Shown here: positions 6,619 through 64,000 of the stretch, in pieces
Layout: every line of letters begins with the position of its first letter
Position numbering within the stretch: position 1 is the first letter of the stretch
Origin: Hysterangium stoloniferum
Taxonomy: Eukaryota; Basidiomycota; Agaricomycetes; Hysterangiales; Hysterangiaceae
Assembly: GCA_015178975.1 (NCBI GenBank)
Contig: WHVD01000010.1
Coordinates: 1-64,000 of the forward strand
Direction: 5' to 3'
DNA length: 64,000 bases
The notes under the pieces: generated by a model
What the model saw: the letters and a program-made list of their open reading frames with translations, nothing else
Told to the model about the DNA's origin: nothing
Database searches by the model: none
Translations under genes and position numbers: made by a program

Positions 6619-6867
6619 TCATATTCGAACACTCTGATGATAACCAATGGGGCCAGGACGATCTAAACCAGCTAAAGGAGGATTATGAAAATCCACAAGC
6701 GGATCACTGCCGGAGGGAAGCGGCCTAGTATACGTAGGAATAGCAGCCGGAGCTAAGAGGTGATCCCCGACTGATTCGCGCGCCAGCTCACTGTCGAAGC
6801 CCACTAGATTGTTCCCGTCAGCTGGTGTGTGCAAGACGTGACTATACGACGATCGATGAGATGACAT
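6619..6867 (-). pseudogene. Diverged relict of the repeated Cys/His-rich gene, first exon
   Basis: The ATG at 6867 (minus) opens MSSHRSSYSHVLHTPADG, which aligns with MSSHPWSYYCRHSQADEG at the start of the gene copy at 41144. The tail DPLVDFHNPPLAGLDRPGPI aligns with NPLAGYHNVPFADLCSPERI of that copy. The usual splice donor lies further left, near 6310-6320 (minus-strand GGTACGTGC), but an inserted element (6393-6540) and a stop at 6619 intervene, and no later exons follow. Non-coding upstream DNA (6868-7100) also matches 41145-41400, so this is an old duplicate and not a chance ORF. It is clearly more diverged than the other copies. Confidence 0.65.
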
Positions 6868-7560
6868 TGCAGACGATGTCAACAGCATAATACGGACCCA
6901 AAATGACCACCATGGTTTCCGTCTGCGGAGGAACGCCCGAGCATGAGTAACATGCCATCCGCCATGGCAGTCCTATTAGTAGACAAATATATTAGACTAA
7001 GCTTAACTATAGCCATAAATGAGACTCATGTGTAGTTGGGATTGACAACATCCGTGTGTGGATTATCATTCCAACTTGCTTCACTACAATAAAGGAGCGT
7101 TGACAACCTTGCAAAACCCGTAGGGCAACGACTCACGACAAGTTCTTGTTGAGTAGGGTGTGCATTTTTAAAATGATGAGGAGTATCACAAATTTTCAAA
7201 TTTGTGCGGTGGGTGGTGGCAAGTAGATTACGAAGATGCGAGAGGAAATCTCTGGACAGTGGACGCAGTGAGAGTTAGAGGGGAGTTAGGGCAAATTTAA
7301 AATATTGTCGTCGATTGATATCAGCAAACCCAAGTAACAGAATCAAGATTACATTCATTTGTTGCTATTGGTGGGAATGTAAACTTATATCACATCACAA
7401 CCGTTGTATTGATTCCATCATGAAACCTCCCATAAGGGAGACAGAGAGAGGGGGGAGACAGAGACAGAATTATATAGGTATGTATGACAGTGATCACAGA
7501 GGATGTACCATCTTGCCATGGTAAGGTACTCTGTCTTAGCAGCATTTACAGTATATCCGT
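6868..7560 (-). repeat. Upstream flank of the diverged Cys/His-gene relict
   Basis: Segments at 6940-7100 (GCCATCCGCCATGGCAGTCC region) and 7360-7440 match the 41210-41400 and 41655-41740 flank of the copy at 38.8-41.1 kb, with many substitutions. No gene is seen in it. Confidence 0.6.
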
Positions 7561-19510: not shown

Positions 19511-19590
19511 TACTCTTAAAAATGATTATATACAGAAAACACATTAGGGTTAGGGTTAGGGTTAGGGTTTAGGGTTTCATTTTAAGAGTA
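19511..19590. repeat. Interstitial telomeric repeat within an inverted repeat
   Basis: Four perfect TTAGGG units (19544-19567) are followed by a degenerate TTTAGGG (19568-19574). The tract lies between TACTCTTAAAAATGA (19511-19525) and an imperfect inverted copy, TCATTTTAAGAGTA (19577-19590). TTAGGG is the usual telomere repeat of filamentous fungi. Confidence 0.93.
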
Positions 19591-20272: not shown

Positions 20273-20404
20273 GTATAATTTTATTTTGATAATTTACAAT
20301 ATAAAATTCATAAAGCATCTGCTTAATTTGCAAAAAGAAACATGTCACGGCACTTGTGTGGCAGCACAACACCCTGCACAGCATTTTCCTATAGCCCAGC
20401 TGTA

Positions 20405-21155
20405 AGTCATAAAACTTTTTCACATGTCATAGATTATCTGTGCCTCCAAACAAGTTGCCTACAGGTCAACTTATGTACTGAGCTCTGAGTGCCGCAAATT
20501 TCTCCATTGGGCATACCGACAAGAACTACATATATATGTGAAGGTTGTTGGGATTTCTTGATATTTGTGTCAGAAGCCCATTGACGGTGCTTGGAATTTG
20601 CTGTGTTTTCTTTGTTGTTATAATATATTAGTAGGTTGTATATTCAATGCAGTCGATGGACTCTTCACTACAGGACTGTACAGTAGCTCACTGATCAGTT
20701 GTGATCTACAAGGCTTTTGTCACACCCTTCACCCACACAAAAATTTGATGTATATTATTTCTGAGAGAAAGGCTACCGATGAAAAGACGAGTTCACCGCC
20801 CCGCCGACTCCTGGTCTATGTTGTGCCAACAATTCACATGTAATGGAGGGGAGCTACACCACAGCCCACAACCATCAGCAAACAATATCTGATGTTATTA
20901 GAATGTTATCGAGCTCTCTTGTTCTATATCTTACATGTAAATGATTCAAATAACTCCGATCCAAAGCATACAAAAATACGTTGACACGTAATAAACCTTC
21001 CGTTCCTGACACCTGCGAAGGTCAATGTTACCCCAGTTGTGACCAAGCCCTTCATCGATCATGACGACGAGACCAATGATGGGTTGAGTTTGATATGGTA
21101 TAATTAATATAAAATATGAGATGACTAGGTGCGCTGGTTGTCTTCATCACCATGC
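20405..21155. repeat. Downstream flank of Cys/His-gene repeat, copy at 21 kb
   Basis: From about 20405 the sequence matches 30350-31091, 37440-38176, 48470-49183 and 49785-50414. Shared blocks include GATAGATTATCTGTGCCTCC, CGATGGACTC, CCGACTCCTG and GACACGTAATAAAC. The plus-strand frame 20565-20843 recurs in other copies, but with shifted ends, so I do not call it a gene. Confidence 0.85.
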
Positions 21156-21493
21156 TCAATCATACTCTCGTTTTTTGAGATCTTGCTCCACTGCCCCTTC
21201 CACCACCTCCCTGTCAGCGATGTTTTGGAGATCTGGATCTCCCAGGTGACTATATCCAATTTCCTTAGCTATTTGGACATAGCTGCGAATTATAAGTGTT
21301 CGCAGGAGGTCTGAACACTCTATGCACCCCTTCTGATGCCCTGCTCCTGGGGCGCAATATTTGCAGAGGATGAGTTTTGAACACTCAGGACTGGGCATCA
21401 TGTGATTCTGCACCTCCCTTGGTCCGGGGAAAGTTTTGTGACAACTGGGCAGAAGTCACTGATGTGTTTCTTTCCCTTTTCCCACTTTTCGCT
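21156..21493 (-). pseudogene. Cys/His-rich repeated gene, 3' fragment of last exon
   Basis: Reading leftward from 21493, this is the end of the last exon of the repeated gene: CPSC-type region (diverged), PECSKLILCKYCAPGAGHQK, GCIECSDLLRTLIIRSYVQI, IGYSHLGDPDLQNIADREVV, ending EKREYD or similar and a stop at 21156. The frame at CSKLILCKYC is intact here, unlike the 31- and 50-kb copies that share a one-base deletion at that point. The exon is cut at about 21494, where a Tc1 transposase fragment joins directly. Confidence 0.8.
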
Positions 21494-22097
21494 GGAAGGG
21501 AGAGGGTTTGGTTTAGAGAGAGGTACAGGGAACAGTCAAATTTGGTGGAGGAAACATCATAGTATGGGGATGTATGGGGTGGAATGGAGTAGGGCATCTT
21601 GCAGAGGTTGAGGGGAATATGAATGCTGACCGGTATGTGTCTATTTTGGAGGACCACATGCTGCCTAGCTTGGAGGAGAGTAGAATTTCTGGAGAGGAGG
21701 TGATTTTTCAACAGGATAATGATCCCAAACATACCTCAAAAAAGGCCACGAAGTGGATGGAGGACAACAATATCACTCTCCTAGACTGGCCTTCACAATC
21801 TCCAGGCATTAGCCTATTTAACATCAATGGGTTCACCTCAAGAGAGAGCTATCCAAATATCCAACAGTCCCCAAGGGAGTTTGGGGGATATAGGAGAGAA
21901 TGGTGGAAGTGTGGACTAATATTCTACCAGAGGTGTGTAAGAATTTAATTGAAAGTATGCCTAGAAGACTAGAAGCAGTTATTAAGGCCAAGGGAGCTCA
22001 TACTAAGTACTATATAATTACAATTACTATATTTTTATTATACACTCACAAAATTGTCCCAATGAGTTATTATATTAAATTGCATATATCTCAATGA
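21494..22097 (+). pseudogene. Tc1/mariner-type transposase, C-terminal half
   Basis: The fragment starts inside the catalytic domain. The frame encodes TVKFGGGNIIVWGCMGWNGV (about 21530-21590), the second Asp motif VIFQQDNDPKHTSKKATKWM (about 21700-21760) and LDWPSQSP. A frameshift follows near the position of the third acidic residue. The end is WTNILPEVCKNLIESMPRRL with AVIKAKGAHTKY at 21985-22010. The N-terminal helix-turn-helix and first Asp are missing. Its relative at 45344-46917 shows the full element. The left boundary falls inside the last exon of a Cys/His-gene copy with no terminal repeat, so it is a rearrangement junction and not an insertion end. Confidence 0.88.
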
Positions 22098-26878: not shown

Positions 26879-28078
26879 ATTAATCTGATATGCAGAGATC
26901 ACAGGGACAACTGTGCACACTGGAAGTACCTTTGCATCCATGGGAGGCCATTGGCATTGACTTTGTTGGTCCACTGCCAGTGTCAAAGAATTGCCTGGGG
27001 AGTTTGACAGTATCTGCATGATAATTGACCATTTAACCTGCATGGTCCATTTAGTCCCAGCACATACCAATTATATGGCCATTCACATGGCCAAGGTGAT
27101 ATTCGAACAGGTTTATAAGTTGCATGGGTTACTGGTGAGGATTATTAGTGACAGAGACTCACTGTTCACTAGTATCTTTTGGAGAGAGCTTCACCAGCTG
27201 ATAGGAGTCGAATTATGAATGTCATCAGCTTACCACCCACAGACAGATGGAGCCACGGAAAGGGCCAATCGGACTATGATGCAGATGCTGCAGCAATGTG
27301 TTGCACCAAATCAGAGAGACTGGGTCTTGAAATTGCCGACTATTGAGTTCACAATGAATAACACTACATCCGAAACTACTGGGTTTTCTCCATTTTTCCT
27401 GAACTATGGTGGGATGCCTCATCCAATGATCTGAGAGAAGAACACAGTGTACCCTGGTGTCCAGGAGTTTTCAGAGTGAATGAAATTGGCAATTATAACT
27501 GCCCACAATGAAATCCTTGTGGCTAGGGTGAAGCAAACAAGGCAGGCCAATTGTCACTGGCAGGCTGTTGATTTCAGGGTCAATGATCATGTATATTTAT
27601 CTACAAAGAATATATGGTTGCTGAAGCATTGCACATGAAAGTTAATGCCTAAGTACTGTATATTGGACCATTCAGGATCATTCGTGAACTCAAGCCAGGG
27701 GCCACTTACAAACTGGAACTGTCCCCAGAGTTAAAGAAACAAGAGATTAACCCTTCATTTCATGCATCCTTGTTGCATATCCACATCCCAAATGACAATC
27801 ATCTATTTCCCGGCAGGCAGCTGAAACAGATTCCAGGGTTTGGTCAATCATCCAGGGAGTGGGTCATGGATAAGATTGTGGCTCACACTGGGAAAGGCAC
27901 CAATGCCTTGTTTGAGGTCATGTGGAATACTGGGCACAATACTTGGCTTCCATATAGAGAGGTGCAGCACTTGCTGCCATTGCAGGCATACCTGGAGGCT
28001 GTTGGTGTTGAAAATGTACAATCATTGAAAAAGGGGTCCAGGCAATCCATCGATTCCACACAGCTGGGTCAGTGAGCT
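26879..28078 (+). pseudogene. Gypsy integrase and C-terminal region
   Basis: It begins abruptly with MQRSQGQLCTLEVPLHPWEA, the same junction as in the copy at 60669, so the zinc-binding HHCC part was already lost before duplication. The core shows IGIDFVGPLPVSKN (first Asp), RIISDRDSLFTSIFWRELHQ (second Asp), a TGA stop after GVEL (27216-27218), then SSAYHPQTDGATERANRTMM (Glu). Another stop precedes EKNTVYPGV near 27431, and further frame breaks occur near 27480-27640. The C-terminal GPFRIIREL, NPSFHASLLHIHIPND and KGTNALFEVMWNTGHNTWLP segments form the chromo-like tail, ending at 28073-28075. Confidence 0.9.
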
Positions 28079-30119
28079 GAAGAGAACAATTGGTTTTCAG
28101 TGTCTCACCTGTCAAGCACACAGTGTTTACCATGTATGGATGTTGGATCAGCTGCACCTCTCATTCATCTTCCTCCTTTGGCTGTCCCACCATGTCTACC
28201 AAGGATAGCCAGACACAGATTGCTTAAGAGTTCTTCACTGTGACTTTAAATGCCATACATGATAGCGCTCTGAAAGGGGTGCAGATCGTGTGGGCATTAC
28301 AGAGGGAAGAGGTGGGGGGGGGGGCTCACCAATGCATTATTGAGATGCAGGAGCAACAGAGGTGTATGATGACCAATGTTGTGACTACACCTCAGTAGGG
28401 ACTGCACTTGGGTGTGGAGGGAGCAGAACCAGTCTGTTGCATTGGCAGAGAGATTAGAGCCACATGGGATGGCACCAAGGCAGCATGATAGGGAACAGGA
28501 TGGTAGTAGTCATAGCTGCCAGGGCAAGTGAAAGAAGCAGAGGGTTGTTTCTTCTACCATGGGGTCATGATGACCTCTGAGGTGTTAGGCTTTCTGGCAG
28601 TTCTGACATGAATCAGATTTTACTCAATAAAGTTGAATAATGATTGAAGAATATTCAACAATATTGAGTACAGATGCCTCATTTGACAAAGTATTGAATT
28701 TGTCCTGTTGATAAAGTGTGAGGCAAATATAGAACACAGAAGCACATGAATAATTAAGTTGAATAAATCTCAGATAGAAGTCAAATTAGCAATGCAATAT
28801 TAATGATACAGATTATAATCCAGGTTTTCTGACTGACTTTCCTTGCTCCTATTGTAGCCCTTTTATGCCTTTCTTCATTTAATTATGATTAAACTATGAT
28901 CTAAGAATGAAATCATATATAATGTCAAAATGAGACAAGTCAAAGGAAAGTCAAAGGAATATCAAATTCAATATCATTGGAATTTGAGCTTGTAGGTTTG
29001 TGACAAGTTCCCAGAACATAGGCAATGAGGCCAGTAATAGTAAGGTGATGTGTAGCATAACAATACCATCCTTTGTAATTCCCTAGGATCTTGTCTAGCT
29101 TGGCCTTGGTATATGTCAACAACCTCTGAAGAAGTGGGACAGATGGTATGGATATCATGAAGTTCCTGCCTTCTGATGCTTTGTCTGTGAGAGTAGTAGC
29201 CATGGATCAAAAGGAAAAAAAATGTGGTTGAGATAGAGATGTCAAAATAGGCCCATAACATGTGGAATAAGAAATATAATAACATTGAGACTGTCTCATA
29301 TATGGGATAATGGACTGAGGTTTCTATGTCATTATAGTCTTCTTTTTATACATTTTCACAATTACTTAAGTGCTGGGGGTGTTGGGGGTCTATACCCGAG
29401 GCCATAGGTGGTGGAGTCTTTATGTCTCAGGTCGGATCACCCCTGATCAGGCAAAGCAGCAGCAGTGATTTCCTTCCTTTCCAACAGAGTCCAAATATGG
29501 AGGACCAGGTCACAAAGATGCAGCCTTTAAAAGCCATCCTCAGTTGACACTGTGATTCTCAGGCCCTAAGGAAATCACAGGAGCTTCAACCAGTGCAATA
29601 TTGCTCTGAAATTTACCGGAAATATCAGGCTTCATAGATCTTCTTCAAGTGGTTTCCACAAGCAAGAGCTTCCAATGAGTATTGGGTGCTGAATTGATTA
29701 GTGGCATTTCCTTCTGCCACCCCATGCAGTGGTGAGTTGGGATTTGACAAGTCATGGCACTGACATTTCAGCTACTGTAAAGTACTACCTTGCCAAGTGT
29801 CCCTCAAATAAATGGAATATCCACCTGATACTATAGTGTGACCCCCACAAATAGCACAGCAAGACCATGAACTTCCTCATGGGTTCCCAACAGACACCAA
29901 TAAATCCTGACAAATGTAAACTCTTATATTAAATACACATTGCGGTTAAATGCATGTCTTTGCCTGACATTGGACTGCTGTGGGTCTAACCGATTGTAAT
30001 GACATATAACTGAGTTAAGACCCTGGGGGGACCAGTCATTTTGGAACAAATGAGCCTGGGAGCACTTCAAGACTTTCATATGAATCAAGCAACGGCGACA
30101 TGTGCTACATTCTGTGTTG
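28079..30119. repeat. Post-gypsy block, copy 1 of 3
   Basis: This non-coding-looking block is repeated almost base for base at 61862-63945 and, rearranged, at 42759-48240. It holds a decayed plus-strand frame starting MSTKDSQTQIA (28192; stop soon after in this copy, open to 62181 in copy 2), a run of ten G at 28314-28323, and the minus-strand frame 28940-29203 listed separately. Because the block follows gypsy pol in two copies and always leads into the Cys/His-gene repeat, it marks a segmental duplication of several kilobases. Confidence 0.88.
28940..29203 (-). pseudogene. Short gag-like frame, conserved in three block copies
   Basis: The 87-codon frame begins MATTLTDKASEGRNFMISIP and continues LLTYTKAKLDKILGNYKGWY and GLIAYVLGTCHKPTSSNSND. 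It resembles the N-terminus of copia-type gag proteins (the NYxxW and GLxxYVxG features), but this is weak. Copies at 62723-62986 (almost identical, full length) and 44111-44311 (shortened) exist. It may be a truncated gag of an unidentified element. Confidence 0.4.
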
Positions 30120-31091
30120 ATAATCTTTTAATTTAGGATACTTCATGAGCAATACTTGCCTTATTAGTGAGGTTGTGTTTTCTCCCCCCAATCAAGCTGA
30201 CATATGCATATGTTCGGTCATGTAACTTTATACTGCATTGCCACATTTGCGGAAATATCCAAATCCTCTCTCTTGTCCTATATGTTGAAATGCAACTTTT
30301 GATCCGGCAAAACTGCGTGTTAGGTAGTCATGGAGAAAGGTAAAACCTTTTCACACGTGATAGATTATCTGTGCCTCCAAACAAGTTGTTTGGAGGCAGT
30401 TGCCTACGGGTCAACTTATGTACTGACTTCGAGTGCGGCAAATTTCTCCATTGGTCATAGCGACAAGAACTATATATGTGAAGGTTGCTGGGATATCTTG
30501 ATATTTGTGTTGGAAGCCCATTGGGGACGCCTCCAATTTGCTGTGTATTCTTTGTGGTTATAATATATTAGCAGGTGGTATATTCAATGTAGTTAATGGA
30601 CTCTCGTCTATGGAACTTTACAGTAGCCCACTGATCAGTTATGATCTACAAGTCTTTTGTCGCACCCTTCACCCACACAAAAATCTGATGTATATTTCCG
30701 AGAAAGGCTACCACGAAAAGACGAGTTTGCCGCCCCGCCGACTCCTGATCGATGTCGTGTCAACAATTCCCATGTATTGGAGGGAAGCTACACCACACCC
30801 CACAACCATCAGCAAGCAATATCTGATGTTATACTGCTTAGAATGTTATCGGCCTCTTGTTCTATATCTTGCATGTAAATGATTTAAATAACTCCGATCC
30901 TAAGCTTACAGAAATACGTTGACACGTAATAAACCTTCCGTTCCTGACGCCTGCGAAGGTCAATGTTACCCCGGTTGTGACCAAGCCCTTCATCGATCAT
31001 GACGACGGACCAATGATAAGTTTAATATGGTAAAATTAATATAAAATATAAGATGACTAGGTGCGCTGGTTATCTTCATCACCATCCTCCA
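30120..31091. repeat. Downstream flank of Cys/His-gene repeat, copy at 31 kb
   Basis: It begins with CTTCATGAGCAATACTTGCC, the same start that reappears at about 63957 at the right window edge and, altered, at 48255. It matches the flanks listed at 20405, 37211, 48241 and 49785. No protein-coding gene is supported in it. Confidence 0.85.
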
Positions 31092-32232
31092 TCAATCGTA
31101 CTCTCGTTTTTCGAGATCTTGCTCCACCGCCCCTTCCACCACCTTCCTGTCAGCAATGTTTTGGAGATCTGGATCTCCCGGGTGACTATATCCAATTTCC
31201 TTAGATATTTGGACATAGCTGCGAATTATGAGTGTTCGCAGGAGGTCTGAACACTCTGCGCACCCCTTCCGATGCCCCGCTCCTGCGGCGCAATATTTGC
31301 AGAGGACGATTTTGAACACTCGGGAGTGGACATCACGTGATTCCGCACCTCCCTTGGTCCGGGGAAAGTTTTGTGACAACTGGGGCAGAAGTCACTGATG
31401 TATTTCTTTCTCTTTTCCCACTTTTCGCTGGTGTTAATGATCCACCCATCCTGAAGTTTCAGGCGATGGGTGCGAATGGCGGCCAACTGATCCCGCACGT
31501 GCACCACCCAGTGTTTAAATGGATGGCGCAAATACGTTGAAAAGTCACACGGCATCTTGGGGCCGTATTTAGGCCCATATGGGCAAGGCTTTTCCCACGG
31601 TGGTGGAGATATGCGGCCAAGGGTGGGTAAGGTTTGGAGGGATGAGGAAAATGTTGGTATTGGACCATGGGGAGATATGAAAGCAGCCTCAACGGGTGAA
31701 TTCCCGCCGATCCGCCGATTGCCGGGGCTCCTGTGTCCGGGGACAGGAAGGCCATCGCCTCCTGCCGACGGTTCAGGACTTGTCTTTAAAATTTGTGGGT
31801 TGGCGGAGGAGCTCCTGGTGATATATTGAATTAGTAGTTTCATTTAGGTGTAATGAAATAATGTCTACCTATGCGCCCCGTCAACCCAAGGAAAGGCCAC
31901 TGGCCAGTGTGGCGTCCGTTGCATTGGAAAGCCGTGCAGATAAGCCGGATTGGCCGCCAAGCTACACCCCACACCAGTGATCAGCAGATTTATCGTGAAC
32001 TTCAAGTAACAACAGTAATACCTGAGAGAGAGACCTGGAGTTGTAAACGCGGCTGCAGGGACAGTGCCACCCGGATTTGGGAGAGATGCCAGGTTAGTAG
32101 ATATTGAAGCACTCGTGGCAACTGTGGAATTAGAATCCCTGAGTTTACATTGCAATTGAATTAAAATTAATGACACGTCTGGACTAAGCTTATATTTTGC
32201 ATACCCATTCCATCCAGCAAGTGACGAATACG
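31092..32232 (-). pseudogene. Cys/His-rich repeated gene, 3' part (end of exon 4 to exon 7)
   Basis: Exons by comparison with the 41-kb copy: end of exon 4 (about 32232-32205), exon 5 (32138-32022, 117 nt), exon 6 (31961-31869, 93 nt), exon 7 (31814-31092). Exons 5 and 6 are exactly as long as in the 41-kb copy and keep GT..AG introns. Exon 7 encodes RSSSANPQI, TLPTLGRISPPPWEKPCPYG, HPFKHWVVHVRDQLAAIRTH, FCPSCHKTFPGPREVRNHV, then after a one-base deletion within TGTTCAAAATCG (about 31311-31318) LCKYCAAGAGHRKGCAEC. The same deletion is present in the 50-kb copy. The 5' part of the gene is missing; the sequence changes at 32232, 75 bases before a copia element. Confidence 0.82.
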
Positions 32233-33367: not shown

Positions 33368-34860
33368 GGAGCGTTTCGTAATAGGGGTCGTGGTCGTGCC
33401 GCCATTCTGCGAGGAACTCAGATCAGGAGGAGTACTCCACAATCTGGTTGTTTTGAATGCGGGGATTTGTCGCATTGGGCAAGCGATTGTCCTAAAAGAA
33501 AGCAGAGATATGCTCAGCGATCTGAAAATTGGAAGAACCAAAATAGAAGTAACGACTCATCTGGAAATACACCATCTCCCTCAGTCGCAAGTAGGGGAAT
33601 GTTTACCACCATCGAATCCACATTTTTTCTTGAGCAAGGAGAGTGTGCCACATAAATATTTCCTGGATTCCGCAGCATCAGGACATTATGTGCCGAGTAT
33701 GTATGACTTACATGATTTTATGGCATACAGAAATCTGAAGAAAATTCAAACGGCAAATGGCACTTATATTTATGCCAGAGGTATTGGAACACTACGTTTC
33801 AAGGTTATGGAACATGGTCTGTAGTTTATAGGAAAAATTCCCAATGTCAAATGGACTCCCGAAGTTAAAGTGCGACTACTTAATCCTGCACAGTTTTTTA
33901 ATGATGGATATCGCGTTATGTTGAGCAAAACTGGTTCTACAATTGTCGATTTGTCAGGCTGTACACTGATTGAGGCGAATGAGAGGGGTAATGTATACCC
34001 TTTCCAGCTGGATACGATCTCCGTGTCACTGCCAGTATGCGAATATACAAATCTATCAGACGATGAATTACAAAATAGGTTGGAAGACGTACCTATGATG
34101 TTTTCCGCAAATTTGACATGCAATATTATGAAATGGCATCAGCGTTTGGGGCATTTTGAGCACGAACGCTATTAGGAATCTTGTGCGACATTTTGCGACC
34201 GGAATGGAGATCGAAGAAATGAAAGGTTTCGAAGCTGACTGCATTGCATGTATTGAAGGTAAACAGTGCAGAAACCCATTCAAAACTGGACGTACCAGAG
34301 CAACAAAATTGGGAGAATTACTCCATATGGATCTTGCCGGACCTATGGAAATGATAAGTTTCGACAAAAAGTGTTATTTCATTATTGTTGTTGACAACTT
34401 CTCCCGTGCTGTATGGGTTGAAACATTAGCAAGCAAGCTGGAAGCAGTGCGCAAAATAAAGGAATATATAACTCAACTGGAGATGTTATTCAATACGAGG
34501 GTCCAAGGAGTTATGATGGATAATGGAACTGAGCTTATAAATTTGGAATTTAGAAGCTATCTGTTATCGAAAGGTATAGCTTTATTTACCTCGGTGCCAT
34601 ATACGCCGCAGCAAAATGGTGTTGCAGAAAGAGGTATACGCACCATTACTGAAGGGGCAAGAACAATGTTATATGCGATGAAAATAGCAGAAGGTGCACG
34701 AAACTTACTATATGCATCAAAACTCCCCAAATTCTTGTGGTCTATCGCAGTCAAAACGATGGCATATTTGAGGAATTGTAGTCCATTGCGTGCAAACAAT
34801 GGACATACACCTATTGAAAGGATAAAGGAACGGTATCTTGGTCTTCGAGGAAGCAGCCAA
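33368..34860 (+). pseudogene. Copia zinc knuckle, protease, GAG-pre-integrase and integrase
   Basis: Order: CCHC knuckle (about 33448-33510), protease KYFLDSAASGHYV (about 33655-33690, D-S-A in place of D-S/T-G), MKWHQRLGHFEHE of GAG-pre-integrase (about 34130-34170) with a frame break, CIACIEGKQC, then integrase: LLHMDLAGPMEM (first Asp), FIIVVDNFSRAVWVE, VMMDNGTELINLEFRSYLLS (second Asp), VPYTPQQNGVAERGIRTITE (Glu). A small internal duplication is visible (ARTMLYAMKIAEGARNLLYA). The domain then stops at GHTPIERI, and the next codons are already RNase H in a different frame. Confidence 0.88.
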
Positions 34861-38176: not shown

Positions 38177-38777
38177 TCAATCGTACTCTCGTTTTCGAGA
38201 TCTTGCTTCACCGCCCATTCCACTTGTTAGCGATGTTTTGAAGATCTGGATCTCCCGGGTGACGATATACAATTTCCTTAACTACTTGGACATAGCTGCG
38301 AATTATGAGTGTTCGCAGGAAGTCTGAACACTCTGCACACCCCTTCCGATGCCCCGCTCCTGGGGCGCAATATTTGCAGAAGACGAGTTTTGAACACTCA
38401 GGACTAGATAACACGTGATTCCGCACCTCCCTTGGTCGGGGAAAGTTTGGTGACAACTGGGGCAGAAGTCACTGATGTATTTCATTGCCTTTACCCACTT
38501 TTCGCTTGTGTCAATGATCGACCCATCCTGAAGTTTCAGGCAATGGGCGCGAATGGCTTCCAACTGATCCCGCACGTGCACCAACCAGTGTTTAAATGGA
38601 TGGCGTGAATAGGTTAATTGGTTACATGGCAACTTGGGGCCGTATTTAGGCCCATATGGGCAAGGTTGTTTCCACGGAGGTGGGGATATGCGGCCAAGGG
38701 TGGGTAAGGTTTGGAGGGACGAGGATGATGTTGGTGGTGGACCATGGGGAGACACAAAGGCAACCCTCCATTCTCCA
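38177..38777 (-). pseudogene. Tandem partial duplicate of the last exon of the Cys/His-rich gene
   Basis: 38177-38777 repeats 38778-39327 plus part of 39675-39730: the same HPFKHWLVHVRDQLEAIR, FCPSCHQTF, ANIAPQERGIGRG in a shifted frame, and SDFLRTLIIRSYVQVVKEI. A one-base deletion in the PGPREV region and a 14-bp loss near its 3' end break it. The duplication unit is about 600 bp, and the junction with the full copy lies at about 38770. Confidence 0.85.
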
Positions 38778-41144
38778 TCAATCATACTCTCGTTTTTCGA
38801 GATCTTGCTCCATCGCCCATTCCACCACCTGCCTGTTAGCGATGTTTTGAAGATCTGGATCGCCCGGGTGACGATATCTAATTTCCTTAACTACTTGGAC
38901 ATAGCTGCGAATTATGAGTGTTCGCAGGAGGTCTGAACACTCTGCACACCCCTTCCGATGCCCCGCTCCTGGGGCGCAATATTTGCAGAGGACGAGTTTT
39001 GAACACTCAGGACTAGATAACACGTGATTCCGCACCTCCCTTGGTCCGGGGAAAGTTTTGTGACAACTGGGGCAGAAGTCACTGATGTATTTCATTGCCT
39101 TTACCCACTTTTCGCTGGTGTCAATGATCGACCCATCCTGAAGTTTCAGGCAATGGGTGCGAATGGCTTCCAACTGATCCCGCACGTGCACCAACCAGTG
39201 TTTAAATGGATGGCGTGAATAGGTTAATTGGTTACATGGCAACTTGGGGCCGTATTTAGGCCCATATGGGCAAGGTTGTTTCCACGGAGGTGGGGATATG
39301 CGGCCAAGGGTGGGCAAGGTTTGGAGGTATAACAAATATACTCAGTCGACACGTAAGGGTGATTCGACTATATTTGTTACCTATAACAAATATACTATGA
39401 CATGTACTTGTTAAGCTATTGTAACTATAATCAAGAAGATAATAACATACCTCAGTCGACACGTAAGGGTGATTCGACTGAGGTATGGGTGTGTAACTGT
39501 CGTAGTTAAATACTCTTCGGTTAACGTGCGGCTGAGATGGTAATACGTGTGTTCTAAGGTACGGTATGGCTGGGTACTGTCATATAAGCTTGATACCAGA
39601 TGGGACGGTGTTGTTTAGTGTCGTTGTGTAAGTTTAACTTAAGCTTGGGCGCACGAGTCTATTTCAACAGGAGGGACGAGGATGATGTTGGTGGTGGACC
39701 ATGGGGAGACACAAAGGCAACCTCAGTGGGTGAATTCCCGCCAATCCGCTGATTGCCGGGGCTCTTGTGTCCGCGGACAGGAAGGCCATCGCCTCCTGCC
39801 GACGGTTCAGGACAATTTGGGTAAATTTGTGGGTTGGCGGGGGAGCTCCTGTTGATATATTTAATTAGTACTGCTTCATTTAGGTGTGAGAAAATAATGT
39901 CTACCTTTGCTCCCCGTCAACCCAAGGGAAGGCCACTGGCGAGTGTGGCGTCCGTTGTATTGGAAACTCGTGCACATAAGCCGGATTGGACGTCAAGCTA
40001 CACCACAGAGCACATTCATCAGTAGATGTATCATGAATCTCAATTGACAACAGTAAATACCTGAGAGTGTGACCTGGAGTTAAAAACGCGGGAGCAGGGA
40101 CAGTGCCACCCGGATTTGAGAGAGATGCCAGGTTAATAGATATTGAACCACTGTTGGCAACTGTGGAACTAGAAACCCTGAGTTTTCAGCGCAATTTAAT
40201 TCCAATTAATAAAACGTCTGGACAAAGCTTATATTTTACATACCCATTCCATCCAGCGAGTGACGAATATGAAGAGATGTAGGTATCCTGTATCCCCGTC
40301 AGATGAGCTGTCCTGTAAGGATATTGCATCCTATTTGGAAGCGCCGGTAGATACTGGGGTTGATTCAGAGATGAAAATCGGGGATAACAGTGATTTTCAT
40401 GGGTATGCGCTTGCAAGACATCTACCTCTCCGAGTGGATCTTGGTGTGGGATGATATCGCTGCATCAAATGATTTGTACAAGGATCATAAGTATTTAATC
40501 GCAATAAACTCACTCATACTCATGGCCATGTGTCGAAGAATAACTGGGTAATGTAAGTGGGACAATGCCGAATCGCCCACCGTAATCCTCAATAGTCCCT
40601 TGCGAAGAAGACATTTCTCTAGCATAGGGAATGGGCCTGGAACGTGAAATTATCAAACTTTAAAAAAAGCAATCAGTAGGTCTGGACTCACGATCCATAA
40701 TCAAACACCTGGTTGCCGTCGCGACTGGAGGACGAACTGGAGATAGGAGGTGACGGTATGCTTCCCAAGTTGAAGCTCGTATTTCCAATGCCGACACTGA
40801 GTGAGCTGGCATCAATGACGTGATTCCGGAGCGGATGCCTATACGACATTTGAAAGTCCGGAAAGGAAAATAACGATTGTCAAAAGTACGTACCCATCAT
40901 GAGAACCGTGATGATGATAAATGCGTTCCGGGGAACACAAATCGGCAAACGGAACGTTATGGTAACCCGCCAATGGGTTCTTGTTAGTTGGTCTATCCAC
41001 GAGCCCATCATGAGTATATTCTTGAGAAGGAACCGACTCGAAGACATGGTGTTGAGCGTGGACTGGCACACCACTCAAGTCCATAGGGTGACCTTCATCT
41101 GCTTGGCTGTGCCGACAATAATATGACCATGGGTGAGATGACAT
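38778..41144 (-). pseudogene. Cys/His-rich repeated gene, best copy (7 exons, one 342-bp insertion)
   Basis: Minus-strand exons: 41144-40894, 40838-40692, 40636-40514, 40459-40244, 40177-40061, 39997-39905 and 39848-38778. The six introns (55, 55, 54, 66, 63 and 56 bp) all have GT..AG ends. With the 342-bp insert (39328-39669) and one 5-bp duplication left out, the exons total 1,671 nt: 556 codons plus TGA, with no internal stop. N-terminal parts are rich in Ser, Pro, His (MSSHPWSYYCRHSQADEG at 1-18; SIPSPPISSSSSRDG later). Residues about 459-482 hold CPSCx12HxxxxxxC and 488-504 hold CKYCx5HxxxGCAEC, perhaps two zinc sites. I recognise no named family; a DNA-binding or other regulator is a guess. 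There is no signal peptide. The insertion breaks exon 7, so this copy is probably inactive. Confidence 0.8.
39328..39669. mobile_element. 342-bp insertion with GGAGG target duplication and two hairpins
   Basis: Compared with the uninterrupted sequence at 38711-38730, the last exon is split here, with GGAGG at 39323-39327 and 39670-39674. The insert starts TATAACAAATATA and ends TTTCAACA. It holds two hairpins (39330-39379 and 39446-39487) with an identical 28-base core (39341-39368 and 39451-39478) inside different stems. The 5-bp duplication suggests an LTR-type integration. Confidence 0.85.
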
Positions 41145-42210
41145 TGTAATAGACGATGATAGCGTAATGCTCACTCATAATGACCCCCCTGTTCCCGCTC
41201 TATCAAGGAAGGTTCTGTCATAAGTGGAATGCCATCCGACAGGGCAGTCCTACAGCAGAATAATAGATAAACGTAGACTTAGAGTCGTGTTAAACGCAAC
41301 TTACGTATGGTTGAAGTCGATAGCACCCGTGGGTGGATTCTCACTGGAACCCGCTTCACTATATGGCATTAATGAGGACAACTGTTGACAGAGAAATCAC
41401 GGACACGATCGAGTGAACTCACAGATGGGGCAAAGATGAAGGAGAGTGTGCGACGAGTGAACGCAATGTCACTGTTAAATGCAATAGACATTCTTTTGAT
41501 AATAGGAGATAACTGTGCAGTAAGTGGGACGTGGATTGCGAAAAGCTTTGGTGGAAAGCTAGTGGACGGAGTAAGAGTTAAGCAAGGTTATAGTATTCGA
41601 CTCTATCAGCAAACTTAAATATCAAATATCAAAGATGACATTGATTTGTTGTTACTTGTGGGTTTGGAAACCGACATCGCGTCGCAACCGCTGTGTTGTA
41701 TCGGTTCCATCACGAAAGCTTGCCTAAAGGTGAATGAATCGGTGCGGGTGGTATTTGACAGTCTGCCCTTAACCTGATCTAAGAAGAGGAACCGCACAGT
41801 CGCCGCACGTCAGCCACGGATCAGAAAATTCGACGATTCCAAGTTGAGCTGAAAATAGCTGATTACAGAATTTGTCGCGTAACTAGACAGGAATTAAGGA
41901 AGGAAACAGATCGTATTAGAATACCTGGCACTTATCGCATAGCAGGTTGATAAATTAATAGACCTCCCTGTCGCCTTAAACTTCTTTACTGAACAGGCGA
42001 AAGGAGTGCTCTATATTTGGTGTTAAATCCAAGTCATCGGGTTCTACGCCAGACACACGACACTCCTGCCTTCATTTGTGAATTTAAAGTGGTCTACACA
42101 GTGCTATCAGAATCTCTAGTCAGAGTCAGACTTTGTAGTTTTCAAGCATCTTTACTTGTCTGGAGCGCTAGGACTCAAGAAAATATATGGGCCCCGGATA
42201 AGTCTTAACT
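41145..42210 (-). repeat. Upstream flank of the Cys/His-rich gene copy at 41 kb
   Basis: Conserved with 52418-52881 plus 54039-54330, and weakly with 6868-7560. It may contain promoter and untranslated leader, since conservation extends to the most diverged copy. Short minus-strand frames (41615-41797) are not long enough to call an upstream exon. Confidence 0.65.
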
Positions 42211-44978: not shown

Positions 44979-45225
44979 AGAAATGGAAAAATACAATATC
45001 TATATGTGACAGACTGTTATAAGACCCAGGTTTGCCATCAGTTATATAAAACTGTTATAAGAGCACAAGTTGGCATCATAAGTCCTTATATATATGTATA
45101 TATAATCCATCATATAATACTAGACTATAGGTCCAGTAGCTCAGTGGTTAAGAGCACCTGCATATAAAGCCAGGAGGTCCTTGGTTCAATCCCAGGCTGG
45201 GTCAATTCTTTTCTATGCCTTTAAC
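44979..45225 (+). mobile_element. SINE-like element with tRNA-related part and 10-bp target duplication
   Basis: AGATCGTGTT occurs at 44969-44978 and 45226-45235. The insert has an AT-rich first part, a tRNA-like block at 45129-45203 and a tail TTCTATGCCTTTAAC. A similar tail (TCTACACTTTTAACA) follows the tRNA-like units of the insert at 58155-58562 when that is read on the minus strand. Confidence 0.75.
45129..45203 (+). tRNA. tRNA-like sequence (pseudo-tRNA of the SINE)
   Basis: GGTCCAG and CTGGGTC can form the acceptor stem, GCTC..GAGC the D stem, and CTTGG TTCAATC CCAGG a perfect T arm. A-box TAGCTCAGTGG and B-box GGTTCAATCCC are good matches. The anticodon arm (CCTGC ATATAAA GCCAGG) needs a bulge, so a working tRNA is unlikely. 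Confidence 0.55.
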
Positions 45226-48240: not shown

Positions 48241-49183
48241 AACATAATTTAGGATACATTATGAGCAAAAGTTGTGAGGTTGTGTTTTCTCCCCCCAATC
48301 AAGCTGACATATGTTCGGTCATGTAACTTTATACTGTATTGCCACATTTCCAGATAATATCCAAATCATCCCATGGGGAAATATTGATGTATTGAAATCT
48401 CTCTCTTGTCCTATATGTTGAAATGCAACCTTCGATCCGGCAAAATTGCGTGTGAAGTCATAAACTTTTTCACATGTGATAGATTATCTATGCCTCCAAA
48501 CGAGTTACCTACGGGTCAACTTATGTACTGAGCTCCAAGTGCGGTAAATTTCTCCATTTGGTCATAGCGACAAGAACTATATATGTGAAGGTTGTTGAGA
48601 TTTCTTGATATTTGTGGAAGCCCATTGAGGACGCTTGGAATTTGCTGCGTTTTCTTTGTCGTTATAATATATTAGCTGGTATATTCAATGCAGTCGATGG
48701 ACTCCTCACTACGGGACTTTACAGTTGCTCACTGATCAGTTGTGACCTACAAGTCTTTTGTCGCACCCTTCACCTAAACAAAAATTTGATGTATATTTCC
48801 GAGAAAGGCTAGCCACGAAAAGACGAGTTTGCCGCCCCGTCGACTCCTGGTCTATGATGTGTGAACAATTCCGATGTATTGGAGGGAAGCTACACCACAG
48901 CCCACAACCATCAGCAAGCAATATCTGATGTTATACTTCTTAGAATCTCATCGGCCTCACTTGTTCTATATCTTACATGTAAATGATTCAAATAACTCCG
49001 ATCCAAGGCTTACAGAAATACGTTGACACATAATAAACATTCCGTTCCTGACGCCTGCGAAGGTGACCAAGCCCTTCATTGATCATGACGACGACACCAA
49101 TGATGGGTTGAGTTTAATATGGTATAATTAATATAAAATATAAGATGACTAGGTGCGCTGGTAATCTTCATCACCATCCTCCA
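48241..49183. repeat. Downstream flank of Cys/His-gene repeat, copy at 49 kb
   Basis: It is homologous to 30130-31091, with small deletions. Confidence 0.82.
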
Positions 49184-49784
49184 TCAATCGTACTCTCGTT
49201 TTTCGAGATCCTGCTTCACCGCCCATTCCACCACCTCCCTGTCAGCGATGTTTTGGAGACCTGGATCTCCCGGGTGACTATATCCAATTTCCTTAGCTAT
49301 TTGAACATAGCTGCAAATTATGAGTGTTTGCAGGAGGTCTGAACACTCTGCGCACTATTAGAGTATGGTGACGTAGGAGTAATATGACATCATACCTTGT
49401 CTTGTGATTGTATGTTTTCCAGACCGGTTCACACATGTGATTAGTATATTTAGTTTAGTGTTCACTTAGTTCTGTGTTGTGCACACATGTTCACTGCACA
49501 GACCAGTGCACAGACTATGTATCTTAGTATATAGTTACATCCAGATGAGAGTAGTTATATCACCGGTTTATACCTTTCTACCCACTCCTCTCTTAGTGGC
49601 TATGCTCCAAGTGATGAGAGTCCTCATACTGTGATAACCAGGCTTGCTTATTCCAACACACACCCCCTTCTGATGCCCTGCTCCTGGAGCGCAATATTTG
49701 CAGGGGACAGACGAGTTTTGAACACTCAGGACTGGATATCACGTGATTCCGCATCTCTTGGTCCGGGGAAAGTTTTGTGGCAAG
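49184..49784 (-). pseudogene. Cys/His-rich repeated gene, last-exon fragment with insertion
   Basis: 49184-49355 and 49666-49784 together encode the last part of exon 7 (PGPREMRNHV-like to EKREYD), split by the element at 49356-49665. At 49785 the sequence jumps back to a point matching 37545, so this copy is truncated by a junction with the next repeat copy. Confidence 0.75.
49356..49665. mobile_element. About 310-bp insertion, relative of 6393-6540
   Basis: It starts TATTAGAGTATGG and ends near TTCCAACA, inserted within GCGCACCCCTTC of the exon. The flanks GCGCAC and ACACAC give only an approximate target duplication. The internal ATATCACCGGTTTATACC is shared with 6393-6540 on the opposite strand. 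Confidence 0.7.
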
Positions 49785-50414
49785 AATTACATGTGAAGGT
49801 TGTTGGGATTTCTTGATATTTGTGTTGGAAGCCCATTGAGGACGCTTGGACTTTGCTGTGTTTTCTTAGTGGATATACATAATGTATTAGCAGGTGGTAT
49901 ATTCAATGTAGTCGATGGACTCTCGACTACGGAAATTTACAGTAGCTCACTGATGAGTTGTGATCTACAGACTTTTGTCCCACCTTTCATCCATACAAAA
50001 ATTTGATCTATATTTCTGGGAAAGGCTACCCACGAAAAGACGAGTTTGCCGCCCCGCCGACTCCTGATCTATGTTGTGTTCACAATTCCATATTGGAGGG
50101 AAGCCACACCACAGCCCACAACCATCAGCAAGCAATATCTGATGTTATCCTGCTTAGAATGTTATCGGCCTCTCTTGTTCTATATTTTACATGTAAATGA
50201 TTTAAATAACTCCGATCCAAGGCTTACAGAAATACGTTGACACGTAATAAACTTCCGTTCCTGACGCCTGCGAAGGTCGACGTTACCCTGGTTGTAACCA
50301 AGCCCTTCATCGATCATGACGACGAGACCAATGATGGGTTGAGTTTAATATGGTATAATTAATATAAAATATAAGATGACTAGGTGCGCTGGTTATCTTC
50401 ATCACCATCCTACA
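49785..50414. repeat. Downstream flank of Cys/His-gene repeat, copy at 50-52 kb
   Basis: It starts within the flank (AGAATTACATGTGAAGGTTG) and is closest to 37545-38176. Confidence 0.82.
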
Positions 50415-52417
50415 TCAATTATACTCTCGTTTTTCGAGATCTTGCTCCACCGCCCCTTCCACCACCTCTCTGGCAGCGATGTTTTGGAGATCTGGATCTC
50501 CCGGGTGACTATATCCAATTTCCTTAGCTATTTGGACATAGCTGCGAATTATGAGTGTTCGCAGGAGGTCTGAACACTCTGCGCACCCCTTCCAATGCCC
50601 CGCTCCTGGGGCGCAATATTTGCAGAGGACGATTTTGAACACTCGGGAGTGGACATCACGTGATTCCGCACCTCCCTTGGTCCGGGGAAAGTTTTGTGAC
50701 AACTGGGGCAGAAGTCACTGATGTATTTCTTTCTCTTTTCCCACTTTTCGCTGGTGTTAATGATCCACCCATCCTGAAGTTTCAGGCGATGGGTGCGAAT
50801 GGCGGCCAACTGATCCCGCACGTGCACCACCCAGTGTTTAAATGGATGGCGCAAATACGTTGAAAAGTTACATGGCATCTTGGGGACGTATTTAGGCCCA
50901 TATGGGCAAGGCTTTTCCCACGGAGGTGGAGATATGCGGCCAAGGGTGGGTAAGGTTTGGAAGGACGAGGAAAATGTTGGTGTTGGACCATGGGAAGATA
51001 TGAAAGCAGCCTCAACGGGTGAATTCCCGCCGATCCGCCGATTTCCGGGGCTCCTGTGTCCTGGGAAGGAAGGCCATCGCCTCCTGCCGACGGTTCAGGA
51101 CTTGTGTTTAAAATTTGTGGGTTGGCGGAGGAGCTCCTGGTGATATATTGAATTAGTAATTGAATTTAGGTGTAATGAAATAATGTCTATGCGCCCCGTC
51201 AACCCAAGGAAAGGCCATTGGCCAGTGTGGCGTCCGTTGTAGTGGAAACCCGTGCACATAAGCCGGATTGGACGCCAAGCTACACCCCACACCACAGTGA
51301 TCAGCAGATTTATCGTGAACTTCAAATAACAGCAGTAATACCTGAGAGAGCGACCTGGAGTTGTAAACGCGGCTGCAGGGACAGTGCCACCCGGATTTGG
51401 GAGAGATGCCAGGTTAGTAGATATTGAAGCACTTGTGGCAACTGTGGAATTAGAATCCCTGAGTTTTCATTGCAATTGAATTCAAATTAATGACACGTCT
51501 GGACTAAGCTTATATTTTGCATACCCATTCCATCCAGCGAGTGACGAATACGACGAAATGTAAGTATCCTGTATCCCCGTCAGTCGAGCTGTCCTGTAAG
51601 GAGATTGTCTCCTATTTGGAAGCGCCGATAGACACTGGGGTTGATTAAGAGGGGAGAATCCAGGATAACAGTAATTTTCTTGGGTATGTGCCTGCAAGGC
51701 ATATACCTCTCCGAGTGGATCTGGGTGTGGGGTGATATAGCTGGATCGAACAATTTGTGAAAGGGTCATAAGTATTTCATTGCAATAAACTCACTCATAC
51801 TCATGGCCATGTGTGAAAGAATGACTGGGTAATGCAGGTAGGACAATGCCGAACCGCTCACTGTAATCCTCAATGGTCACTTGGGAAGAAGCCATTTCTC
51901 TAGGTGGGGGATGGGTTTAGAACGTGAAATTATCAAAAGTGAAAAGTAATCGGTAGGTCTGGACTCACGATGTATAAACAAACACCTGGTTGCGGTCGCG
52001 ACTGGAGGATGAACTGGAGATAGGAGGTGACGGGATCCTTCTCATATTGCAACTCGTATTTCCAGTGCCGACACTGAACGAGTTGGCATCAAAGACAGGA
52101 TTCCGGAGAGGATGCCTATACAACGTTTCAAAATACGGAAGGGAAAATAACGATTGTCAAAGCACATACCCATCATGAGAACCGTGGTGATGATAAATGG
52201 GTTCCGGGGGACCCAGATCAGCAAACGGAACGTTATGGTAACCCGCAATTGATTCTCGTGAGTCGGTCTATCCACGAGCCCACCCTGAGTATATCCTTGA
52301 GGAGGAACCGACTGGAACACATGGTTGAGTGTGCACCGGCACACCACTGAAGCCCATAGGGTAACCTTCATTTGCTTGGCTGTGCCGACAATAATATGAC
52401 CACGGATGAGATGACAT
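50415..52417 (-). pseudogene. Cys/His-rich repeated gene, seven-exon copy with frameshifts
   Basis: The ATG at 52417 opens MSSHPWSYYCRHSQANEGYP. A 2-base loss (CAACCATGTG against CAACACCATGTC in the 41-kb copy) shifts exon 1. Splice sites match those of the 41-kb copy (donor GGTATGTGC near 52168; exon 4 DTYISSYSSLAGWNG near 51540). Exon 7 encodes HPFKHWVVHVRDQLAAIRTH and FCPSCHKTFPGPREVRNHVM. It then has the same one-base deletion as the 31-kb copy before LCKYCAPGAGHWKGCAEC, and ends at 50415. A 4-base deletion in exon 6 (ATGTCTATGCG against ATGTCTACCTATGCG on the plus strand) may affect a splice donor. Exon 4 also has substitutions introducing a stop. Confidence 0.8.
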
Positions 52418-52881
52418 TGTAGGAAACGTTGATGGTATAATTCTCACTCATATTGACCACACTGTTCCTGCTCTTTAAAGACAGACTCTGTAAGGAGTGG
52501 AACGCCATCCGTCCTACACAGCAGAATAATAGATAAATGTAGACTTAAAGTCGTCTTAAACGCAACTCACGTATGGTTGAGGTCGATAGCACCCGTGGGT
52601 GGATTCTCACTGGACCCGCCTCACTATATTGCATTAATGAGCACAACTGTTGACAAACAAATCACGGACCATGACGGAGTGAACTCACAGATGGGGCAAA
52701 GATGATGAAGAATAGAAGGCGTGTGCGGGGTGAGTGGACTCAATGTCACTGTTAAATCCAATATCCATTCTTTTGATAATAGGAGATAACTGTACAGTAA
52801 GTGGGGCGTGGATTGTGAAAAGCTTCGGTGGAAAGCTAGTGGACGGAGTAAGAGTTTAATCAAGGTTCTAGTATCGTCGTT
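52418..52881 (-). repeat. Upstream flank of the Cys/His-rich gene copy at 52 kb, continuing at 54039-54330
   Basis: It matches 41145-41620. The match resumes at 54025-54330 after a LINE insertion. Confidence 0.8.
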
Positions 52882-52895
52882 GATTCTATCAGCAA

Positions 52896-57874: not shown

Positions 57875-58177
57875 CAGTGGCTCAAAAAACTGTCCCAATG
57901 TTTTCTCATTCTTGAAAGGTTAGGTTGGTATGGACCACTGACATAAGCAGAAAATCTAAGTAAATTATCAAAGGTACTATAGGATCATGGCTTGAAGGTA
58001 AGCCTTGGTTCATGTGATTTGAATCAAAACCCATTGAATAATAAATACAACAAAACAGCTGCTCATTGGGACAGTTTTTTTACCCTTTATTTTTTGACCT
58101 GTGTTCCTACTGTTATGCACCAGTACAAGGCCATGGGAACAATAAAACATGTCATGTTAAAAGTGTAGATAATGAAT

Positions 58178-58248
58178 GGCCAGACTGGGGATTGAACCCA
58201 GGGCTTCTGCATATATAGCAGGGGTGTTAACCATTACACCACCTGACC
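58178..58248 (-). tRNA. tRNA-like unit 1
   Basis: The minus strand reads GGTCAGGTGGTGTAATGG.. to ..CAGTCTGGCC. The acceptor pairs GGTCAG/CTGGCC, the D stem GGTGT/ACACC, and the T arm CTGGG TTCAATC CCCAG. The anticodon stem CTGC/GCAG encloses TATATAT, which lacks the usual U33. It is probably a pseudo-tRNA used as a SINE promoter. Confidence 0.5.
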
Positions 58249-58461
58249 CTGGGAAGCACTGCTAGCATTACTCAAACTAACACACTCCCTTAATGCTAGC
58301 ACTCAACTATACTATAAGCAGATATAGGTCCTCTCTGGCTCTTTTGTCCAGACTTGTCCACTATACCACACACAAATATAGCTGTTCACTCTACACACAG
58401 GAACCATGCCCTATAGCACACAGCGGGGCCCATAACCTGTTAAAAGTGTAGATAATAAATG

Positions 58462-58531
58462 GCCAGACTGGGGATTGAACCCAGGGCTTCTGCATATATA
58501 GCAGGGGTGTTAACCATTACACCACCTGACC
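58462..58531 (-). tRNA. tRNA-like unit 2
   Basis: A near-identical second copy of the unit at 58178-58248, with the same arms and the same odd anticodon loop. Confidence 0.5.
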
Positions 58532-58839
58532 CTGGGAAGCACTGCTAGCATTACTCAAACTAACATGTCACATGACTTTATTTGTATTTGTTTGACAGGT
58601 TTAAAGTGGTTCAACTACATCCTGACTTCTTACCACCATCATGAGATCTATTTCTGCTGCTCAATGCTCTTCTATTGTCTCTCTTGTTAGATTTTCAGGT
58701 AAAGCAAGCAGTCGGAGTCGTATAGTGACTGGGGGAACTAATTCTCACCTTAATTAGTGCTCTTTTTATTAGTATATAATCCCCATAGTTACACATGTGA
58801 CCCCCCATGTGTTTATAACCAACAATATCACTCAGACAG

Positions 58840-63945: not shown

Positions 63946-64000
63946 AATTTAGGATACTTCATGAGCAATAGTTGCCTTATTAGGGAGGTTGTGTTTTCTC
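63946..64000. repeat. Start of another Cys/His-gene repeat flank at the right edge
   Basis: AGGATACTTCATGAGCAATA and GAGGTTGTGTTTTCTC match 30135-30184, so another repeat copy probably continues beyond the window. Confidence 0.75.

What the first reader, a model, noticed from the sequence alone, without database searches (positions are those of the whole stretch)
38778..41144. Repeated intron-bearing gene with paired Cys/His clusters, family not recognised
Comparing copies gives one consistent seven-exon model. All six introns are 54-66 bp with GT..AG ends, exons 5 and 6 have identical lengths in two copies, and the summed exons (minus one insertion) equal 1,671 nt with no stop. Fragments or copies lie near 6.7, 21.3, 31.5, 38.4, 39-41, 49.5 and 50.4-52.4 kb, and another flank begins at 63.9 kb. 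Intron retention means spread as DNA, with long conserved flanks. Either this is an expanding host gene cluster or the cargo of an undescribed large mobile unit. The C-terminal CPSC..H..C / CKYC..H..GCAEC pattern could be a new zinc-binding module.
Basis: partly seen in the sequence, partly recalled or inferred. Interest (0 to 1): 0.82.

Follow-up and report, generated by a model that had tools for sequence, protein, structure and literature searches.

The report
Expanded zinc-finger-like family in truffle-like fungus
A truffle-like forest fungus carries well over a hundred scattered genes and gene scraps of a zinc-finger-like protein family that our searches found in no other organism, apparently spread by copying of chromosome segments; the copy flagged here is itself a broken one.

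Summary
The repeat is real. The genome is Hysterangium stoloniferum; its copies in NCBI are named hypothetical proteins. The flagged copy is damaged: an 8-base deletion in exon 1, a 342-bp LTR-like insert in exon 10, and a tandem partial 3' duplicate. Nine copies on C2, C46 and C203 have an uninterrupted last exon. Five genome searches merge to about 166 match loci on 57 contigs, fragments included. Three protein searches found relatives in this species only; no Pfam model reaches its cutoff. Twelve divergent members keep two Cys/His clusters; a middling-confidence model shows two strand-strand-helix modules, a weak profile match points to C2H2 fingers, and one subfamily keeps canonical C2H2 spacing. 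I read it as a lineage-restricted family of degenerate tandem C2H2-type fingers behind a low-complexity tail, multiplied by segmental duplication. The copy edges compared show no common terminus, so a mobile-unit cargo is not supported. Introns diverge as fast as exons and dN/dS is mostly 0.57-0.76, so constraint is weak. Zinc binding and function are inferred, not shown.

The parts
38778..41491 (-). Family gene copy, ten exons (41491-41423, 41358-41305, 41249-41175, 41106-40894, 40838-40692, 40636-40514, 40459-40244, 40177-40061, 39997-39905, 39848-38778); damaged copy
   Evidence: Seven-copy alignment and splice check; NCBI proteins P0001-P0005
41423..41491 (-). Exon 1, 8 bases shorter than in the C46:1030k copy, so out of frame with exon 2
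38778..39848 (-). Exon 10, interrupted by the LTR-like insert; encodes the Cys/His modules
39328..39669 (.). 342-bp LTR-like insert with GGAGG on both sides; 20 rows at 90-98% identity on 17 contigs (a capped list)
   Evidence: (rows matching query 551-892)
38177..38765 (-). Tandem partial duplicate of the gene's 3' end (96% identical over its main part)
38781..39323 (-). 181-residue stretch used for the structure models; finger 1 C18, C30, H42, H46; finger 2 C84, C87, H100, C107; third cluster C113, C116, C126, C129
30158..32232 (-). Truncated paralogous copy with 3' flank; last exon falls into two frames
20404..21495 (-). Fragment: 3' flank and end of the last exon
48245..49355 (-). Fragment: 3' flank and end of the last exon
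49788..52895 (-). Near-complete paralogous copy with several gaps in the exons that are not multiples of three
6844..7086 (-). Distant fragment similar to exons 2-3 and the introns beside them
   Evidence: 68% over 247 columns against 41121-41361
63950..64000 (-). 3' flank of the next copy, which continues beyond the window to C2:66920

Best explanation
The repeated gene is a fungal (host) gene family found so far only in Hysterangium stoloniferum. Annotated proteins of the window type and the C367 type have about 510-610 residues, those of a related CPWG type about 300-340. Each has a low-complexity Ser/Pro-rich part followed by two degenerate C2H2-type (strand-strand-helix) zinc-finger modules about 37 residues apart; the window type adds a third CxxC..CxxC cluster. 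Shown: exon structure, intron-bearing copies, family size, conserved Cys/His columns, no recognised homologue. Inferred: it binds zinc and nucleic acid and acts as a transcription-regulator-like nuclear protein. Copies arise by segmental and tandem duplication of several kilobases next to transposable elements; many decay by insertion, frameshift and truncation (the window copy is one of these), and a minority keep an open frame.
For: The seven aligned copies keep all nine intron positions, with introns about as alike as exons (C2_65 versus C46_1030: 87.0% and 87.0%), which means DNA-level duplication. Shared blocks of about 3-8 kb include flanking TE sequence and have differing edges. Nine copies keep an open last exon across dS up to 0.40; dN/dS is 0.57-0.76 in 28 of 29 comparisons between subfamilies, the other being 0.84. 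The nine invariant columns in 12 divergent members are P, C, H, W, H, C, P, C, H; columns whose top residue is Cys average 0.97 against 0.50 for all columns in A3, and 0.83 against 0.51 in A4. The second AlphaFold2 model (pLDDT 68.4) puts the Cys before, and H42/H46 and H100 inside, helices 39-55 and 94-103, in strand-strand-helix order. Profile A3 against PDB sequences lists Zif268/EGR1 or YY1 fingers in 10 of 12 rows, E 0.03 to 2.8. The C12 subfamily has C-x2-C-x12-H-x4-H spacing.
Against: No Pfam zinc-finger model reaches its cutoff (zf-C2H2_4 at E 0.08-0.8), and some unrelated Pfam models score as well or better below their cutoffs (for example Phage_zn_bind_3 0.066, DUF7930 0.018, Glucosamine_iso 0.017). 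The PDB profile E-values are weak. His columns as a class are conserved less (0.64 in A3, 0.61 in A4). The model is of middling confidence and the first one was poor. Exons diverge as fast as introns, so constraint is weak, and by my reading the last exon is interrupted or partial in 15 of 24 copies and fragments on C2, C46, C203, C533, C457 and C470. No expression, localisation or binding data were seen.
Confidence: 0.6

Rival explanations
1. The gene is cargo or an own gene of an undescribed large mobile element that carries it around the genome.
For: About 166 merged match loci on 57 contigs. One subfamily is dispersed at 661k, 933k, 1056k and 1184k of contig C2 and 786k of C544 with 90-97% identity over more than 2 kb. 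Some edges recur (C46:978678, window 42758 and 52895).
Against: Each recurring edge is passed by other pairs (for example C46:977020-983426 with 1034002-1027622, and C2:61889-68223 with 82021-75640), so it belongs to one copy or group. The recurring left edge of the dispersed subfamily (query 125) is passed by sequence shared among three copies; the two others differ there. No transposase domain above cutoff was found in 21 family queries; the nearest is a sub-threshold RAG1 importin-binding match in P0022, E 0.056. Right-hand edges of the dispersed subfamily and target duplications were not examined.
Confidence: 0.13
2. The family is a decaying or neutral by-product: genes copied passively by segmental duplication next to transposable elements, with no present function.
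For: Intron and exon identities are equal, dN/dS is mostly 0.57-0.76 with linkers at 0.75-1.03 in four of five pairs, and many copies are broken.
Against: dN/dS is below 1 in 34 of 36 comparisons (the others, 1.21 and 2.19, are between close copies with few changes); Cys columns are kept in distant subfamilies.
Confidence: 0.2
3. The open frame is an antisense artefact of another gene.
For: None found.
Against: Divergent subfamilies keep the frame, and NCBI lists the same proteins.
Confidence: 0.02

Closest known systems
C2H2 zinc-finger proteins (Pfam zf-C2H2, Zif268/EGR1, YY1)
   Same: Cys pair before and His within the following helix, in two modules; canonical spacing in the C12 subfamily; weak profile similarity.
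   Different: In the window copy finger 1 has 11 residues between its Cys, finger 2 ends in Cys instead of His, the fingers are about 37 residues apart, a CxxC..CxxC cluster follows, and no Pfam cutoff is met.
Hypothetical proteins BU17DRAFT_84512, 84517, 62176, 63051, 72189 and others of H. stoloniferum
   Same: These are members of the family.
   Different: Named one by one as hypothetical proteins; P0006 and P0008 look like fusions of two neighbouring family genes.
KRAB zinc-finger gene clusters of vertebrates (recalled)
   Same: Large young zinc-finger families in repeat-rich clusters.
   Different: Two modules rather than long arrays, no effector domain recognised, and the finger-2 helix (..VRNH..) looks conserved rather than diversified, by eye.

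Membership tests
Classical C2H2 zinc finger | C-x2-4-C-x12-H-x3-5-H spacing | tested here: inconclusive
   Finger 1 of the C12 subfamily fits (C-x2-C-x12-H-x4-H); in the window copy finger 2 is C-x2-C-x12-H-x6-C and finger 1 is C-x11-C-x11-H-x3-H.
Classical C2H2 zinc finger | Score above the curated Pfam cutoff | tested here: not met
   zf-C2H2_4 at 13.8 bits against a cutoff of 27; no family above cutoff in the 10 and 10 queries.
Classical C2H2 zinc finger | Strand-strand-helix fold | tested here: inconclusive
   The order of elements fits in a model of pLDDT 68.4.
Classical C2H2 zinc finger | Zinc and DNA or RNA binding | not testable with these tools
   No biochemical data.
Transposable element or element cargo | Common termini across copies | tested here: not met
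   In the window and 16 loci compared, edges differ between pairs or are passed by other pairs; a recurring left edge in another subfamily is not an end. Other copies and right-hand edges of that subfamily were not compared.
Transposable element or element cargo | Target-site duplications around the unit | not tested
   Only the LTR-like insert inside exon 10 was checked (GGAGG on both sides).
Transposable element or element cargo | Encoded transposase, recombinase or reverse transcriptase in the protein | tested here: not met
   None above cutoff in 21 family queries; one sub-threshold RAG1 importin-binding match, E 0.056.
KRAB-type TE-silencing zinc fingers | Long finger arrays and a silencing effector domain | tested here: not met
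   Two modules and no recognised effector domain.

The most novel reading that the evidence does not exclude
A lineage-restricted zinc-finger family has expanded to over a hundred loci beside transposable elements because it takes part in genome conflict, for example recognising and silencing those elements, giving a fungal counterpart of vertebrate zinc-finger clusters with an unusual split finger pair.
Probability: 0.08. Interest if true: 0.8.

Novelty: new variant of a known kind. Interest (0 to 1): 0.45.

Why it matters
It gathers a string of 'hypothetical proteins' into one large family with a testable biochemical activity. For scale, a census of 30 Basidiomycota found 1032 classical C2H2 genes (abstract of PMC12295980), about 34 per species; this one genome has about 166 match loci of the new family, fragments included, and none of the members scanned reaches a Pfam cutoff, so such a census would miss it. 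If the fingers work, an ectomycorrhizal fungus has evolved a private regulator family. It also offers a well-marked case of how segmental duplication next to transposable elements makes and breaks new genes.

Tried and rejected

Papers: seven full-text searches listed no title or abstract opening that describes this family; 'BU17DRAFT' is in 0 papers of the held library. Of PMC7550596 I saw the listing and found passages, of PMC12295980 the listing and passages; the others only as search listings.

Count of loci: I copied rows by hand (rows with E up to about 0.001; from the last three calls mainly places not already listed) and merged starts within 1.2 kb. The 166 loci include fragments, near-identical small contigs (C457, C470) and possible haplotype copies, neighbouring copies within 1.2 kb count once, and the weakest rows may be chance.

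Full report
What was checked. The window is the first 64 kb of contig C2 in a 111.1-Mb, 554-contig genome. Protein hits on contigs of the same lengths name it as Hysterangium stoloniferum, a basidiomycete of the Phallomycetidae, described as ectomycorrhizal in PMC7550596 (passage). Several transposable-element fragments lie in the window: of ten frames scanned, four match integrase (one of two above cutoff), retroviral SH3, Tc3-type transposase or RNase H models in addition to two NAGLU frames (integrase at 34132 and, below cutoff, 60735; SH3 at 1323; transposase at 46031; RNase H at 52790). The TE share of the window was not measured.

The gene. It is on the minus strand. Aligning the window copy with C46:980k, 1030k and 1059k (96.7-98.3% over the exons against C46:1030k) and C2:50k, 65k and 77k (87.0-87.7%) gives ten exons and nine introns. 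NCBI proteins P0001-P0005 share the N-terminus, so the frame is not likely to be an antisense artefact.

State of the flagged copy. Exon 1 lacks 8 bases relative to C46:1030k. Exon 10 holds a 342-bp insert at 39328-39669 with GGAGG on both sides and 20 rows of relatives at 90-98% on 17 contigs; its repeat character and 5-bp flanks are LTR-like, but no full element was sought. The 3' end is duplicated in tandem at 38177-38765. It is therefore probably a pseudogene. Open last exons (234-240 residues of the 240-residue query, no stop) are found at C46:702k, 848k, 980k, 1030k and 1059k, at C2:65k, 78k and 103k, and on C203: nine of the 24 copies and fragments that I count on those contigs plus C533, C457 and C470.

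Family size. Searches of the own genome with five family members gave 102, 85, 77, 67 and 71 rows (the first two at E up to 10, the rest up to 0.001). Rows up to about E 0.001 merge to about 166 loci on 57 contigs, fragments included. The subfamilies are linked stepwise: the window type to C246, C113 and C367 (38-43% identity), to the C128/C279 type (best E 4e-8), and that type to C12 (best E 7e-7). P0001 and P0016 align over 353 columns, including the part before the Cys/His module, E 6e-41.

Taxonomic range. Three searches of 5.8 billion proteins returned 9 of 9, 6 of 6 and 11 of 11 hits from this one species. The method needs shared words, so this is restriction at that sensitivity, not proof of absence.

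The Cys/His module. In 12 divergent members the invariant columns are P, C, H, W, H, C, P, C, H. In the model, E17, C18, C30, E31, then helix 39-55 with H42 and H46; and E82-83, C84, C87, E90-91, then helix 94-103 with H100, and C107 after it, follow the C2H2 order. The C12 subfamily keeps CKLC-x12-H-x4-H. A profile search of PDB sequences lists Zif268/EGR1 or YY1 in 10 of 12 rows, though at E 0.03-2.8; the top row 2dlk is named only 'novel protein' and 6raw is unrelated. Pfam finds only sub-threshold zf-C2H2 models, beside equally weak unrelated ones. I therefore call the module a degenerate tandem C2H2 type; zinc and nucleic-acid binding are inferred.

Selection. dN/dS of the last exon is 0.57-0.76 in 28 of 29 comparisons between subfamilies (the other 0.84) and scatters from 0.34 to 2.19 in seven comparisons of close copies. 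For the Cys/His part it is 0.48-0.78, and for the linker 0.75-1.03, in four of five pairs tested; the fifth pair (linker 7.99, module 1.05) differs too little to read. Introns and exons have equal identity. Constraint is present but weak.

Mode of spread. Introns and flanks travel with the gene, so copying is at the DNA level. Blocks of about 3-8 kb are shared, and in the window and 16 loci compared the edges differ from pair to pair or are passed by other pairs; blocks run into TE sequence, for example 26887-32232 with 60678-66089. In the dispersed C2:661k subfamily a left edge recurs at one position, but three copies share sequence beyond it, so it is an insertion or rearrangement in the other two. 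This fits segmental duplication better than transposition of a unit; not all copies were compared and target duplications of the unit were not sought.

Known or not. The proteins are in public databases as hypothetical proteins; seven literature searches listed no description of the family. Lineage-specific expansions of classical C2H2 genes in basidiomycetes are known (PMC12295980; listing and passages seen); that study selected genes with PF00096, so it would probably miss this family, and its text does not name Hysterangium.

Noticed in passing
C46:869299-871781, 836462-838542; C533:1234247-1236174: A second family type (CPWG..) sits just upstream of the window-type gene in the same orientation in several loci; NCBI models P0006 and P0008 look like fusions of the two.
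   Followed up: partly
C2:661k, 739k, 781k, 833k, 933k, 1058k, 1185k; C544:788k; C550:85k: A third subfamily is dispersed about every 40-130 kb along C2, with proteins 87-98% identical to the 661k one.
   Followed up: partly
C128 and C279: Eight merged loci each, with closely matching members; possibly the two haplotypes of one cluster.
   Followed up: no
C457 and C470 versus C46:835196-842999: Small contigs 99.3-99.8% identical to each other and to a C46 segment, possibly assembly duplicates.
   Followed up: no
12885-14967: An apparent alpha-N-acetylglucosaminidase (NAGLU) gene.
   Followed up: no
19544-19576: Interstitial TTAGGG stretch, 5.3 copies.
   Followed up: no
58155-58565: Two tRNA-Ile (TAT) genes in 128-bp direct repeats 99% identical; a tRNA called Tyr with anticodon ATA lies at 45130-45204.
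   Followed up: no
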